NCBI GenBank assembly: GCA_017535325.1
Contig: JAFXUC010000058.1
Span: 1 to 64,000, forward strand
Source of the DNA: Bacteroidales bacterium
Lineage (GTDB): Bacteria; Bacteroidota; Bacteroidia; Bacteroidales; UBA3824
Direction: 5' to 3'
DNA: 64,000 bases
Part shown: piece after piece, positions 5,522 to 10,885 of the stretch
How the letters are laid out: the number at the start of each line of letters is the position of its first letter
Numbering within the stretch: the stretch's first letter is position 1
Program-made: the position numbers and the translations under genes
Notes under the pieces: model-generated
The model's input: the letters and a program-made list of their open reading frames with translations, nothing else
What the model was told of the DNA's origin: nothing
Databases searched by the model: none

Positions 5522-6472
5522 ATGTCAAAATATTTTAACCCATATACGGATTTTGGTTTCAAAAAACTTTTCGGTACGGAACTGAACAAAGACTTGCTTA
5601 TCAGTTTTTTGAACGCTTTGTTTGAAAAAAGTCCTGAGATTCCGCACGATGAAATCACGGACATTACCTATTTGAACTCCGAACAACTCGGACGCACTGC
5701 CGCAGACAGAAAAGCAATTTTCGATGTTTATTGTACAACCAAAAGCGGCAGCCGTTTTATTGTTGAAATGCAGAATGTTTTTCAGCAATTTTTTAAAGAC
5801 CGCAGCGTTTATTATTCATCGTTTCCAATCCGCGACATGGCAAAAAAAGACAAGGACGGCGAACATTGGAACTATGAACTTCAAGCGGTTTATACTGTCG
5901 GCATTTTGAATTTTGTTTTCAAAGACAACGAAAAAAAAGACGAAAAAGGCGAAGTTTTGAACGAGTTTTCCGACGATGATTTACTGCATATTGTTATGCT
6001 GACCGACCAAATTACTGGCAAAGTCTTTTACGACAAGTTGGTTTATTTCTATCTTGAAATGCCAAAATTTAAAAAGACCCGCGCAGAATTGGTTACGATG
6101 TACGACAAATGGTTGTATGTTTTGCACAATCTTTCTATATTGTTAGAACGTCCGCGAGAGTTACAAGAGCGCGTTTTTGAGCGAGTTTTCAAAATAGCAG
6201 AGATTTCTATGCTTTCAGAGGTTGAACATCTTGAATACGAAGAAAGTCTTAACGCTTTGTGGGACATAACCAACGCTATGGAAGATTCCGAAAAGAAAGG
6301 TTTTTTCAAAGGGAAAGAAGAAGGCGAAAAACTTGGTCTTGAAAAAGGTCGTGCGGAAGGTCGTGCGGATGCAATGCAGGACATCGCCCGCGCAATGAAA
6401 CAGCATGGCGACGATGTTGATTATATCGCTATGGTTACCAAACTTTCCATTGAAGAAATCGAAAAATTATAA
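5522..6472 (+). CDS. Rpn family recombination-promoting nuclease (PD-(D/E)XK, PDDEXK_2)
   Basis: A 316-aa protein. It opens with the family signature YFNPYTDFGFKKLFGTE, followed by the nuclease core AIFDVYCTTKSGSRFIVEMQ (about residues 68-87), where FD and the Glu in VEMQ fit the D and (D/E)XK metal-binding positions of PD-(D/E)XK enzymes. The C-terminal part carries charged FFKGKEEGEKLGLEKGRAEG repeats typical of these proteins and ends in an MTKLSIEEIEKL-like helix. Such proteins are often labelled putative transposases; work on E. coli Rpn homologues shows DNase activity that raises recombination and some act in phage defence. No inverted repeats flank it, so there is no sign that it is itself mobile. 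It is monocistronic, with its own promoter and terminator. Confidence 0.88.
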   Translation: MSKYFNPYTDFGFKKLFGTELNKDLLISFLNALFEKSPEIPHDEITDITYLNSEQLGRTAADRKAIFDVYCTTKSGSRFIVEMQNVFQQFFKDRSVYYSSFPIRDMAKKDKDGEHWNYELQAVYTVGILNFVFKDNEKKDEKGEVLNEFSDDDLLHIVMLTDQITGKVFYDKLVYFYLEMPKFKKTRAELVTMYDKWLYVLHNLSILLERPRELQERVFERVFKIAEISMLSEVEHLEYEESLNALWDITNAMEDSEKKGFFKGKEEGEKLGLEKGRAEGRADAMQDIARAMKQHGDDVDYIAMVTKLSIEEIEKL

Positions 6473-6677: not shown

Positions 6678-6701
6678 GCATCGCATCGCATCGCATCGCA
6701 T
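6678..6701. repeat. GCATC pentanucleotide tandem repeat
   Basis: Four full copies of GCATC plus GCAT, perfect. It is the only such tract seen in the window and lies in a non-coding gap, 141 nt before the LLAASG peptide start. Confidence 0.9.
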
Positions 6702-6713
6702 AAAAAATTTGCT

Positions 6714-6841: not shown

Positions 6842-7018
6842 ATGAACAATTTAAAAAATGCCGCCGAAGTAAAGGCAGCGGCAAACAAAAAGCCTTACGT
6901 TAAACCCGATTTTGAGGTAATCAACCTCGAAGACACGCCGAAACTGTTGGCGGCAAGCGGAAATGGTTTGGGAACAACTATTAACGGACCGCAAAACGGT
7001 GGTAGTTTGGATTATTAA
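6842..7018 (+). CDS. Small LLAASG-motif protein (58 aa), unknown function
   Basis: A 58-residue product with an Ala/Lys-rich N-terminus, then KPDFEVINLEDTPKLLAASG (residues 21-40) and a Gly/Asn-rich tail ending NGGSLDY. Short Bacteroidota proteins with the pattern KPxxEVIxxE...LLAASG and a Gly-rich tail recur next to surface lipoproteins; I know this as a recurrent pattern, not as a characterised family. The leader-plus-GlyRich-tail layout resembles a secreted peptide precursor, which is inference. The stop is 19 nt before the lipoprotein start, so the two are probably co-transcribed. An ATG start follows an AT-rich leader without a strong ribosome site. Confidence 0.65.
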   Translation: MNNLKNAAEVKAAANKKPYVKPDFEVINLEDTPKLLAASGNGLGTTINGPQNGGSLDY

Positions 7019-7037
7019 AAAGAAGGAGGAATTTGAA

Positions 7038-8204
7038 ATGAAAACAAGTTTTTTTAGAATCCTGCCCTTGACGGCAGTGGTATTGCTTGCAACCTCTTGC
7101 AGCAAAGACGAAAACAATGACAAAGAAGTTGTCAACAACAGCCCCGCAAACGTTGTAATCGAAAAGAGCGTGGTAAAAATACCTTTTTCTGTAAAGGTTA
7201 ATCAGGGAAAAACGCTTTCAAAAATCGCATACAGCGGTTCAGAATCTTCTGTTACCGTGTCTTTTACAGATGACGATGTTACAAAGGGTACAATTTTGAA
7301 CGTAACAGGCACAGGCATTGAAGCAAGTACTTTAACTCTTGAAAAACAAGGCGAATCATACGTTTTTAAAGGCGATATAAACCTTTCAAGCGATGAATAT
7401 AAAGCAAGTTTTGAAAGCGGAGATATAACCCTTACAGGAAGTTTTGGAACTGCTGAAACGACTACAAAAAGCAGTACGGTATCGCTTGCTAATTTGATGG
7501 AAAATTGCAATCATCAGTATCTTGCAACATTTAAATCAGATGCAACGTCAATTGACCTTTACGATCAAAATTCGTATATTGAGTTTACTGTTGCAAAAGG
7601 TCAGTATAAAGTAAACATAGGAGAAAATTGGTATCCGGAAGGTGAAGGAAAAATAATTGACCAAGAGTTGAATAAACTTTGGGTTGTTGTACCTTCGGGA
7701 AGTGTCAGCGGACATTTTATAAAAGCAAATGCAACTGTTGACGCCGGAAAAATCTACACAATAACCCGCACCGATGTAGTAGACCTTGGCTTGTCGGTTC
7801 TTTGGTGTACGTCAAATGCGACATCAACAGAAACCGATCAAAAGAATTGGGAGGATGCCAAAACATTGGCAAATAGCGTTGAAGGTTATGAATTGCCTTC
7901 TGCCAGCAATTTCAAGGAATTGATTGGAGAAGAAATTGTTAGCGGCGTAACAGTAACAAAATCGGTGAAATGGAATGGCACAGGTACGGAAAATGGCGTT
8001 ACTTTTTCTACTGACTACGGTTCAGTTTTCTTCCCTGCGACCGGTTCCTACGGCGGCATGGATGCCGGCGCCTCCGGTAACTATTGGTCGGGGACTGGGG
8101 GCGTCGACAACGTTTTCGGCCTGAGCTTCGACGTTGATCGCGCGATTGTGGGCAGTGCCGAAGAGGACTACATGTTCTCTGTTCGGCTTGTGCGCGGCTT
8201 GTAG
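7038..8204 (+). CDS. FISUMP/Lcl-like surface lipoprotein with a diversified C-terminus
   Basis: A 388-aa lipoprotein. The start is ATG 7038, preceded by AAGGAGG at 7023-7029; a longer frame from 6963 would run over the upstream peptide gene and is rejected. Lipobox LLATSC puts the lipidated Cys at residue 21. Residues about 30-240 are Ser/Thr/Gly-rich beta-type sequence. From about residue 252 comes a VDLGLSVLWCTSNATS domain of the Fibrobacter-succinogenes-major-paralogue (FISUMP)/DUF1566 type, with the typical ending GNYWSGT...FSVRLVRGL. This C-type-lectin-like fold is a common target domain of diversity-generating retroelements, and the last 160 bases are A-poor and rich in NNC codons (see 8046-8204). 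Probably displayed on the cell surface as a binding protein; ligand unknown. Confidence 0.75.
   Translation: MKTSFFRILPLTAVVLLATSCSKDENNDKEVVNNSPANVVIEKSVVKIPFSVKVNQGKTLSKIAYSGSESSVTVSFTDDDVTKGTILNVTGTGIEASTLTLEKQGESYVFKGDINLSSDEYKASFESGDITLTGSFGTAETTTKSSTVSLANLMENCNHQYLATFKSDATSIDLYDQNSYIEFTVAKGQYKVNIGENWYPEGEGKIIDQELNKLWVVVPSGSVSGHFIKANATVDAGKIYTITRTDVVDLGLSVLWCTSNATSTETDQKNWEDAKTLANSVEGYELPSASNFKELIGEEIVSGVTVTKSVKWNGTGTENGVTFSTDYGSVFFPATGSYGGMDAGASGNYWSGTGGVDNVFGLSFDVDRAIVGSAEEDYMFSVRLVRGL
8046..8204 (+). other. Candidate DGR variable region (VR)
   Basis: The 3' end of the lipoprotein gene changes composition abruptly: lines 8041-8100 and 8101-8160 hold 7 and 8 A out of 60, against 23 of 60 at 7921-7980. 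Most codons at positions that align with Asn-rich template proteins end in C (GGC, GCC, TCC, GTC, GAC, TTC, CGC), as expected if AAC template codons had been rewritten at A. Framework residues of the fold (GNYWS, L.F, FSVRLVR) are kept. No reverse transcriptase or template repeat is in the window. Confidence 0.55.
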
Positions 8205-8234
8205 AATTTACTGATATTCTGTAAAAAAATGTAT

Positions 8235-8263
8235 CGGGCGGAAATTATTTTTCGCCCGTTTTT
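8235..8263 (+). terminator. Hairpin downstream of the lipoprotein gene
   Basis: CGGGCGGAAA pairs with TTTTCGCCCG (8235-8258, one G-T wobble) and is followed by TTTTTATT. It can terminate the lipoprotein transcript; a hairpin just past the variable region is also a known aid to DGR retrohoming. Confidence 0.65.
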
Positions 8264-8264
8264 A

Positions 8265-8297
8265 TTTGCGGATTTTTCAAAAAAAATTGTACTTTTG
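8265..8297 (+). promoter_or_regulatory. Bacteroidota-type promoter for porP-gldJ
   Basis: TTTG at 8265-8268, 21 nt, TACTTTTG at 8290-8297; porP starts at 8330. Confidence 0.7.
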
Positions 8298-8329: not shown

Positions 8330-9307
8330 ATGAAAAAAACTTTTTTGTTTGCAATATTTTTTTCCTTGGCTGCCGGTGTTGCGGAGGCTCAGGAATATTG
8401 TTTTTCGCAGTATTATTTGGACAAACTTTCTGTTAATCCTGCGTTTTCCGCCGTTGGGGATTACAGTGAAATCGGCGTTATTTTCAGGGATCAGTGGCCC
8501 GGAATTGAAGGCGGTTATAAAATTTACAACCTTGAATATCAGCAAAAACTGCCGTCTTACGACAGCGGTCTCGGGCTGAGGTTTTTCGGCAATACGGGCG
8601 GCGGCGGGGCGTTTAAGGTAAATGAGTTTGCTTTGGGCTACGCTTATACTTTTGCTCTTAACTACAAATTGAAATGTTCGCTCGGCTTGCAGGGGGCGTA
8701 TTATATGCAGAGTTTCAATCCCTCTGGCTTGGTTTATTACAGTATGATTGACCCCGCTTCGGGAGATGTTTCCCCGCTTAATGAGGACATACCTTTTGAA
8801 AAGACGGGCTGTCTTAATTTTTCGGGCGGAGTGATTTTTTATACGAAGAATACTGTTGTTTCGGCAGCGATGTACCGTTTTACCTCCATGACGCTTTCGG
8901 GTGAGAAAACCGCCATGCCGCTGATGATAACGGGGCTTGTAAACCACAAAATAAAACTTTCAAGCCATGCCAAAGGGGGTAAAATCGAAGACGTTTTTGT
9001 TGTTCCGACGATAAATTTTTCACATTCCGCCAACGCGGATATGATAATGCCGGGAGTTTATTTTTACGGAAAAATGCTTTTGGCGGGACTTAGTTTCAGG
9101 TATCAGAAAACTGACTTTCAGTCTTCTGCTGTTGTAACGAGCATAGGGTTCAGGGTCGGCAAAACGGAAATAGGTTTCGGTTACGATTTTTATACTGGGG
9201 CGGTCGGAACACCGTCAAAAAACTCTTTGGAGGCGGGCGTAAAATATAAATTTGAAAATTCCGAAAAAAATAACGGTTCAAAAACAATATTATGCCCTGC
9301 ATTTTAG
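8330..9307 (+). CDS. PorP/SprF family T9SS outer-membrane protein
   Basis: A 325-aa protein starting at ATG 8330 with a signal peptide ending AGVAEAQ. The family motifs CFSQYYLDKLSVNPAFSAV and IFRDQWPGI follow directly, and the C-terminus ends ILCPAF. It is the second PorP/SprF protein of the window (the other is at 1130-2167) and the two share this head and tail pattern. PorP is an outer-membrane component of the T9SS translocon/attachment machinery. The gene for a GldJ-like lipoprotein starts 48 nt downstream on the same strand and the two probably form one transcript from the promoter at 8265-8297. Confidence 0.9.
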   Translation: MKKTFLFAIFFSLAAGVAEAQEYCFSQYYLDKLSVNPAFSAVGDYSEIGVIFRDQWPGIEGGYKIYNLEYQQKLPSYDSGLGLRFFGNTGGGGAFKVNEFALGYAYTFALNYKLKCSLGLQGAYYMQSFNPSGLVYYSMIDPASGDVSPLNEDIPFEKTGCLNFSGGVIFYTKNTVVSAAMYRFTSMTLSGEKTAMPLMITGLVNHKIKLSSHAKGGKIEDVFVVPTINFSHSANADMIMPGVYFYGKMLLAGLSFRYQKTDFQSSAVVTSIGFRVGKTEIGFGYDFYTGAVGTPSKNSLEAGVKYKFENSEKNNGSKTILCPAF

Positions 9308-9355
9308 TTATATAATATATAGTGTTTGTTAGAAAATTTAAAAAACTTTAATGAT

Positions 9356-10885
9356 ATGAAAATGCGATTGAAAATAGCAGTACTTGCGTGCGTTATTTCG
9401 GGTGGTATGTTTACTATGCAGTCATGCGGACCGAAATTGTCGTTGCGCAATGGAGAATCCTCTAAAACCGGTTGGGCGTACAACAAACCGGAGTGGGGCG
9501 GTTTTGAAGTTGCCAAATACGTTGAACAAGAAGCGGGTCCTGGTCTTGTTTTGATAGAAGGCGGTACTTTTACTATGGGTAGTGTAGAGCAAGACGTTAT
9601 GTATGACTGGAACTCTATGAGAAAACGTGTTACGGTGTCTTCGTTTTATATGGACGAGACGGAGATTTCAAACGTTGACTACCGTGAATATTTGAATTGG
9701 GTATACAAAGTGTTTTTTGACGAGTATCCTGAACTTTATTACAAGACTTTGCCTGATACGCTCTGTTGGCGCAGACGTCTGGCTTACAACGAACCGTACG
9801 TTCAGTTTTATTTCCGCCACCCTGCCTACAACGATTATCCGGCAGTCGGTGTAAGTTGGGAACAGGCATCTGATTATTGTCTTTGGCGTACCGACCGTGT
9901 AAACGAGAAGGCTCTTATCACGGCGGGCGTTTTGGAATACGACACTGAGCAAAAAGGTGCAAACAATTTCAGTACGGAGGCTTACATTGCCGGTAAATAC
10001 GTAGGGCAGGTTAAGAACAACATTCCTTCACCGAGTTCTCCCGACGGCGAAAGACCCGCAAAAATGGAAGACGGTATCATGTTGCCTTCTTACAGGCTTC
10101 CTACCGAGGCAGAATGGGAATATGCTGCTCTGGCTCTTATCGGAAACTCTTTGTCTTCTCCTGAGCGTATTGTCAACCAGAGACTTTACCCGTGGAACGG
10201 ACACTATGTAAGAAACGAGGAAAAAGCAAACCGCGGTCTTTTCCGTGCCAACATGCAGAGGGGCAGGGGCGACCTTATGGGTGTTGCCGGTTATCTTAAC
10301 GACAACGCTGCACCTACCGCGCCGGTTGACAGTTACTGGCCTAACGATTACGGTTTGTACTGTATGGCGGGCAACGTCAACGAGTGGGTTTTGGACGTAT
10401 ACCGTGTATCTTCCAATCTTGACATTGACGAGTTCAACCCCTTCCGTGGTAACGTTTTCCAAGTGCTTGCAACCGACGAAAACAACGAATATATTCAGGA
10501 CGATACCACCGGACGCCTTAAATACAGGGATATGACAGACGAGGAAAGTATGGATCGTATCAACTACAAAAAGGCTGACAACATCAACTACAAAGACGGT
10601 GATTTGAGGTCTCAGATTGTTGACGGTCCGGACTGGATTAGTTCTCCCGATGAAGGTACTGAGCGCATGTATCACAACCATCACACTCCTGAATATCCGA
10701 TGAAATCTTTGGTTAACGACCGTGTAAGGGTATACAAAGGAGGCGGTTGGAGAGACCGTGTTTATTGGATGGTTCCCGGCACGAGAAGATTTTTGCAGCA
10801 GGACAAATGCAACGACGACTTGGGTTTCCGTTGCGCGATGATTCGTGTGGGTTCTCCCTCAGGTGTGAGCGGAGCAAAGAAGTAG
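9356..10885 (+). CDS. gldJ: GldJ-like T9SS/gliding lipoprotein (FGE-sulfatase fold)
   Basis: About 509 aa, starting at ATG 9356 (MKMRLK; ATG 9362 is also possible). A lipoprotein signal ends at MQSC near residue 23. The sequence GWAYNKPEWGGFEV, then GPGLVLIEGGTFTMGS and SSFYMDETEISNVDYREYLNWV, is the GldJ pattern within the formylglycine-generating-enzyme-like fold; late motifs are MAGNVNEWVLD and GGGWRDR...DLGFRCA. GldJ and its paralogue GldK are outer-membrane lipoproteins that form the periplasmic ring of T9SS with GldN; they keep the fold but not the catalysis. The GWxYN motif favours GldJ over GldK/PorK. No gldL, gldM or gldN follows; the gene ends at a strong terminator. Confidence 0.78.
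   Translation: MKMRLKIAVLACVISGGMFTMQSCGPKLSLRNGESSKTGWAYNKPEWGGFEVAKYVEQEAGPGLVLIEGGTFTMGSVEQDVMYDWNSMRKRVTVSSFYMDETEISNVDYREYLNWVYKVFFDEYPELYYKTLPDTLCWRRRLAYNEPYVQFYFRHPAYNDYPAVGVSWEQASDYCLWRTDRVNEKALITAGVLEYDTEQKGANNFSTEAYIAGKYVGQVKNNIPSPSSPDGERPAKMEDGIMLPSYRLPTEAEWEYAALALIGNSLSSPERIVNQRLYPWNGHYVRNEEKANRGLFRANMQRGRGDLMGVAGYLNDNAAPTAPVDSYWPNDYGLYCMAGNVNEWVLDVYRVSSNLDIDEFNPFRGNVFQVLATDENNEYIQDDTTGRLKYRDMTDEESMDRINYKKADNINYKDGDLRSQIVDGPDWISSPDEGTERMYHNHHTPEYPMKSLVNDRVRVYKGGGWRDRVYWMVPGTRRFLQQDKCNDDLGFRCAMIRVGSPSGVSGAKK

What the first reader, a model, noticed from the sequence alone, without database searches (positions are those of the whole stretch)
8046..8204. Lipoprotein C-terminus looks like a diversity-generating retroelement variable region
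The last 160 bases of the gene are A-poor (15 A in 120 bases at 8041-8160, against 23 in 60 at 7921-7980), and codons at the positions where DGR target proteins vary end mostly in C. The framework GNYWS...L.F...FSVRLVR of the FISUMP/C-type-lectin fold is kept. This is the expected footprint of adenine-directed mutagenesis of AAC template codons. No reverse transcriptase or template repeat is in the window, so the target would be served in trans, or be a relic.
Basis: partly seen in the sequence, partly recalled or inferred. Interest (0 to 1): 0.78.

Follow-up and report, generated by a model that had tools for sequence, protein, structure and literature searches.

The report
Orphan hypermutation target in a lipoprotein
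The end of this bacterial surface-protein gene carries the marks of a known DNA-rewriting machine (a diversity-generating retroelement), but the machine is not in this genome's assembly, although a sister species has it next to a template that matches two related genes; so the gene looks like a left-behind or remotely served target.

Summary
The last ~160 bases of the lipoprotein gene (7038-8204) are A-poor. Codons in its variable loops end in C far more often than their amino acids predict (22 of 37 against 12.0 expected, P = 0.0002); the framework shows no excess (9 against 7.6). The tail is predicted to adopt a C-type-lectin fold. The assembly (98% complete) holds no DGR reverse transcriptase and no template matching this tail; its only RT is UG26. 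The gene belongs to a genus-wide family with at least 13 other loci in this genome. For two of these paralogs I found a matching template: sister genome G008 has, on one contig, a target gene's 3' end, an accessory ORF, a template repeat and a DGR RT. That template differs from the G000:C115 tail at 21 of 44 adenines but 10 of 145 other bases. Same-locus orthologs in two species are 94-97% identical just upstream but 67-87% in the tail. Decayed cassettes sit beside other family members. Best reading: an orphan DGR variable region, probably a relic, possibly still served in trans. Leftover DGR targets are known from Treponema denticola, so this is a new member of a known kind. No template was found for the window tail itself.

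The parts
7038..8204 (+). Lipoprotein gene, 388 aa, SPII signal (LLATSC), C-terminal C-type-lectin-fold domain
   Evidence: reading frame; AlphaFold2 model mean pLDDT 78.5; best solved match 8q4e Lcl C-terminal domain, Z 9.3, 114 residues
8040..8204 (+). Variable-region-like tail: A-poor loops with C-ending codons between framework GNYWS, L.F and FSVRLVRGL
   Evidence: matches tails in G013:C102 (70% DNA identity over 217 nt) and G006:C51
8174..8226 (+). Conserved 3' end of the tail plus stop and first downstream bases, shared with other family loci in the genus
   Evidence: 85-92% identity over 46-53 nt to G013:C102, G008:C67, G002:C200 and G007:C478
8235..8263 (+). Hairpin followed by T-run (probable terminator) just after the gene
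   Evidence: DNA fold z -3.2 for 8195-8290; the flanking sequence recurs behind other family members, G000:C69 and G016:C14
6842..7019 (+). Small ORF of about 58 aa directly upstream (MNNLKNAAEVKAAANKKPYVKPDFEVINLEDTPKLLAASG...), not needed for the finding
   Evidence: read from sequence
5522..6472 (+). PDDEXK_2 (PF12784) gene, a copy of which lies beside many family members
   Evidence: Pfam 3.6e-62; tblastn neighbours

Best explanation
The tail is an orphan variable region of a diversity-generating retroelement (DGR). It belongs to a genus-wide family of surface lipoproteins whose C-type-lectin-fold ends were written by mutagenic retrohoming: RNA from a template repeat rich in AAC codons is copied by an error-prone RT that misreads adenines, and the cDNA replaces the 3' end of a target gene. 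In this lineage the core (accessory ORF, template, RT) has been lost or is not assembled, so the window tail is most likely a leftover that now evolves by ordinary mutation. Shown: the composition and codon signature; the predicted fold; the RT plus a template matching paralogous tails in a sister species; adenine-biased differences in those pairs; decayed cassettes beside other members. Inferred: that this particular tail was itself made by such a DGR, and that it is no longer being rewritten.
For: C-ending codons in excess only in the variable loops. Genome-wide family. Sister genome G008:C32 has a target-gene 3' end, 183-aa ORF, template and 402-aa DGR RT with GLPIGNLTSQ and YVDD motifs. 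Template against the G000:C115 tail: 21/44 A and 10/145 non-A mismatches, Fisher P = 5e-9; G000:C5 20/43 and 17/142; G014:C227 22/44 and 15/145. G000:C5 and G014:C227 are the same locus in two species (88% over 3,046 bp): 93-97% nt identity in codons 244-363, 67-87% in the tail, with 97% identical codons at conserved residues. RT pseudogene (88 aa, 92% identical) behind a family member at G008:C81; accessory ORF cut to 33 aa behind G010:C92. No DGR RT in G000. Tails form a continuum of C3, T3 and A content; the window is mid-way (C3 0.57, T/(C+T) 0.28, against 0.03 in the freshest tail and 0.64 in its own gene body), as expected of an ageing tail.
Against: No template for this tail was found in its own genome, and the template found elsewhere does not match it. 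Its framework codons are no more conserved against its nearest tails (0.52-0.58 identical) than gene bodies are, unlike the C115/C5 group. Loop lengths differ by whole codons among relatives, so several templates would have been needed. Orthologs L102/L124 have conserved C-rich tails (91%), so this composition can persist without rewriting.
Confidence: 0.62

Rival explanations
1. The tail is a current remote (trans) target: an RT-template cassette is present in the cell but missing from the MAG, and still rewrites several lipoprotein tails.
For: In G008 the cassette lies between a variable region and a PDDEXK_2 gene, both multi-copy in this genome, and the G008 contig itself breaks inside the variable region; a contig of about 2.5 kb could easily be lost from a bin. 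C115 and C5 show recent writing of two loci with one framework.
Against: No RT of this clade in G000 or in G014; of 18 genus genomes only G008 has one. The window tail has more T-ending loop codons than the freshest tails.
Confidence: 0.2
2. The tail was brought in by recombination from a DGR-bearing locus of another strain, phage or paralog, and was never written in place.
For: Tails are modular: G008:C51 and G008:C81 share 71% of body residues but only 35% of tail residues; the same 3' end is joined to an A-rich tail in G008:C67; viral DGRs of this RT clade carry YWS-type lectin tails.
Against: No donor with a close match to the window tail was found.
Confidence: 0.12
3. An ordinary fast-evolving lectin-like tail whose C-rich, A-poor composition comes from selection or local base bias, without any DGR.
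For: No template for this tail; A-rich members with the same 3' end exist (L058/L080).
Against: The third-base C excess is limited to variable codons; paralogous tails match a real template with adenine-biased differences.
Confidence: 0.06

Closest known systems
Treponema denticola DGR (TvpA family) with remote and leftover lipoprotein targets (PMC4891356)
   Same: Lipoprotein targets with C-type-lectin tails, several target loci per genome, and target genes kept in strains that lack RT and template
   Different: Different phylum; the window's own template is unknown here; a PDDEXK_2 gene accompanies many of these family members
DUF1566 (now Lcl_C) / Fib_succ_major DGR targets of human gut microbiomes (PMC4159848)
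   Same: Same tail domain type; a lipoprotein with a C-terminal Fib_succ_major variable region is described there
   Different: Those are cis DGRs with RT and template; the window gene has neither
Viral DGRs with RTs of the same clade (IMG/VR)
   Same: RT up to 59% identical to G008:C32 (L251); order target - accessory ORF - template - RT; YWS...VRPVR tails
   Different: Carried on contigs classed as viral, with the target in cis

Membership tests
Diversity-generating retroelement (complete system) | DGR-type reverse transcriptase in the genome | tested here: not met
   Only RT in G000 is UG26; no hit with the G008-type RT or the genus' other DGR RTs. The assembly is incomplete.
Diversity-generating retroelement (complete system) | Template repeat matching the variable region except at template adenines | tested here: not met
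   Degenerate template pattern for the window tail: only the tail itself in G000.
DGR variable region (target gene) | C-terminal C-type-lectin-fold domain carrying the variable residues | tested here: met
   Predicted model; 8q4e Z 9.3, rmsd 4.2, 114 aligned; 8oks Z 9.2; many CTLDs at Z 7-8.5. A prediction, not a solved structure.
DGR variable region (target gene) | Variable codons carry the third base of AAC-type template codons | tested here: met
   22 of 37 loop codons end in C against 12.0 expected, P = 0.00019; framework 9 against 7.6.
DGR variable region (target gene) | Differences between copies confined to template adenines | tested here: inconclusive
   Strongly biased for paralogs C115, C5 and G014:C227 against the G008 template; no template and no strains for the window tail.
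Surface lipoprotein | Signal peptide with lipobox | tested here: met
   MKTSFFRILPLTAVVLLATSC; the cysteine is invariant in 26 members. By sequence only.
UG26 RT as an unrecognised DGR enzyme for this family | A template repeat near the UG26 gene | tested here: not met
   None of the UG26 loci (L143-L153) gave a template for any tail; G016 has family members but no RT.

The most novel reading that the evidence does not exclude
A single RT-template cassette, absent from the binned chromosome (for example on a short unbinned contig or a mobile element), rewrites a dispersed family of many lipoprotein tails in trans across this rumen Bacteroidales genus, with PDDEXK_2 neighbours helping to spread the targets.
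Probability: 0.1. Interest if true: 0.75.

Novelty: new member of a known kind. Interest (0 to 1): 0.45.

Why it matters
Metagenome surveys of DGRs look for targets next to the RT and would miss remote ones (stated in PMC8144416). This case shows that orphan targets can be recognised from codon third bases and family frameworks alone. Within one genus it shows an intact cassette, decayed cassettes and target-only loci. That suggests much C-type-lectin diversity in gut Bacteroidales lipoproteins may be DGR-made although no RT is nearby, and it gives a testable composition gradient for how such tails age.

Tried and rejected
UG26 RT of the own genome as the writer: no template near any UG26 locus, and not present in all genomes with the family. 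The genus' other DGR RTs (G009, G010, G011): they have intact cis pairs, but their tails are FGE-sulfatase type and do not match the lipoproteins. Degenerate template pattern derived from C115/C5: no hit in 18 genomes, because the real template differs at some non-A bases; it was found by comparing all tails with fetched loci instead. Direct search of viral contigs with the window protein: nothing. Plasmid and phage collections hold only RTs under 60% identical. Rfam on the gene region: nothing. PHROGs and PADLOC on the window protein: nothing. The FISUMP name was not confirmed by Pfam for the window protein; Lcl_C fits the family better.

Full report
What was checked. The gene runs 7038-8204 (+) and encodes a 388-aa lipoprotein. 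The composition is unusual for the window: 0.28% of 120-base windows are as A-poor, and 0.06% of 45-codon gene stretches are both as A-poor and as rich in C-ending codons. With amino acids held fixed and codon usage taken from 36 window genes, the loops have 22 C-ending codons against 12.0 expected (P = 0.00019), while the framework has 9 against 7.6. So the bias sits where DGR targets vary.

The genome. The window is G000:C104 of a 3.72-Mb, 140-contig, 98.4%-complete assembly. Its only RT with an RVT_1 domain lies on C86 and is UG26 (PADLOC 1.7e-149). A template pattern made from the window tail (every base may be itself or A; 54 positions, 3 mismatches) finds only the tail itself. The protein search finds the window gene and 13 paralogous loci. 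A profile of the tails finds 16 places, several of them at further loci. Homologs occur in 15 of 18 genomes of the genus.

The family shows DGR writing. The tails of G000:C115, G000:C5 and G014:C227 keep 95-97% identical codons at conserved residues, against 70-84% in their bodies. Where residues differ, 63-73% of codon pairs both end in C, against 6-8% in the bodies. A second group of three genes (G008:C67, G008:C51, G014:C104) shows the same with much less related bodies. G000:C5 and G014:C227 are the same locus in two species (88% identity over 3,046 bp): codons 244-363 are 93-97% identical in DNA, while the tail falls to 67-87%.

The template and RT. Comparing every tail with every fetched locus revealed a template on G008:C32. 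The contig starts with the last 29 bases of a variable region and its stop (GQSVRAVRCMN*), followed by a 183-aa ORF, the template (about 919-1116) and a 402-aa RT with GLPIGNLTSQ and YVDD. Against this template the C115 tail has 21 of 44 A positions changed but 10 of 145 others (Fisher P = 5e-9); C5 and G014:C227 behave alike. C115 shares 57 bases with the G008 contig start (96.5%), then lacks the ORF, template and RT, and resumes similarity just behind the RT (80% over 61 nt). So the core is absent there as a block; whether it was lost or never present is not settled. A long hairpin lies behind the G008 variable region (z -9.3). Viral RTs of this clade (up to 59% identical) often have their own template and target pairs (55 of 80), some with YWS-type tails; L251 also has the accessory ORF in the same place.

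Decay. G008:C81 has an 88-aa RT remnant, 92% identical to the intact RT, behind another family member. G010:C92 has an accessory ORF cut to 33 aa behind its tail. The RT clade is absent from G000. Across the tails that could be parsed, C-ending loop codons fall from 0.78 to 0.09 and T/(C+T) rises from 0.03 to 0.83 as A rises; the window lies between (0.57, 0.28). This is what ageing orphan tails would look like, though members that never were targets could also fill the low end.

The window tail itself. Its nearest tails are G013:C102 (70% DNA over 217 nt), G006:C51, and 3' ends in G008, G002 and G007. With G006:C51, 53% of differing codons both end in C; with G013:C102, 47%; body values are about 5%. 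But its framework codons are not especially conserved (0.52-0.58), and no template for it is known. So its DGR origin is inferred from the family and from composition, not shown by a template pair.

Fold. AlphaFold2 on 26 members gives mean pLDDT 78.5, with 79-93 over the last 60 residues. VIA-align places the C-terminal part on the Legionella Lcl C-terminal domain (Z 9.3) and residues ~245-388 on many C-type lectins (Z 7-8.5). DUF1566 (the older name of Lcl_C, from my own knowledge) and Fib_succ_major tails are described DGR targets in human microbiomes, including a lipoprotein (PMC4159848). Foldseek's best match, 4eps, is a structure that the same paper compares with TvpA.

Placement. Treponema denticola has the same arrangement: lipoprotein targets, remote targets, and leftover targets in strains without RT or template (PMC4891356). 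I therefore file the window gene as a probable orphan DGR target, a new member of a known kind. It is not a complete DGR: two defining parts of the system were tested and not found.

Noticed in passing
window 5522-6472; G000 loci L008, L009, L010, L012, L016, L017, L069: A PDDEXK_2 (PF12784) gene lies next to the lipoprotein at about 8 of the 14 loci examined in this genome (the closest copies 81-96% identical), and one directly follows the RT in G008:C32. The two may spread together.
   Followed up: partly
L049, L050, L051 (G009:C134, G010:C92, G011:C151): A second DGR type in this genus: intact RT, template and target in cis, with FGE-sulfatase tails on large multidomain proteins (L049 and L051 with a GxGGxGK[ST] nucleotide-binding motif; the L051 protein starts with a TIR-like stretch), reminiscent of DGR-diversified conflict sensors (PMC10907252).
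   Followed up: partly
L143 (G000:C86) and same-genus loci L144, L146-L153: A UG26-like RT (FRYSDD motif; UG26 confirmed for G000 only) is present in about half of the genus genomes; its neighbourhood was not studied beyond looking for templates.
   Followed up: no
window 6678-6702 and 6842-7019: A short ATCGC tandem repeat, then a 58-aa ORF of the 'KPYVKPDFEVINLED..LLAASG' kind just upstream of the lipoprotein.
   Followed up: no
window 8330-10885: PorP/SprF gene followed by an FGE-sulfatase-domain gene, probably type IX secretion (GldK-like); unrelated to the tail.
   Followed up: no
L053 60-205 (G008:C32): Very stable DNA hairpin (z -9.3) about 60 bp behind the variable-region stop, like the hairpins described downstream of DGR variable regions.
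   Followed up: partly
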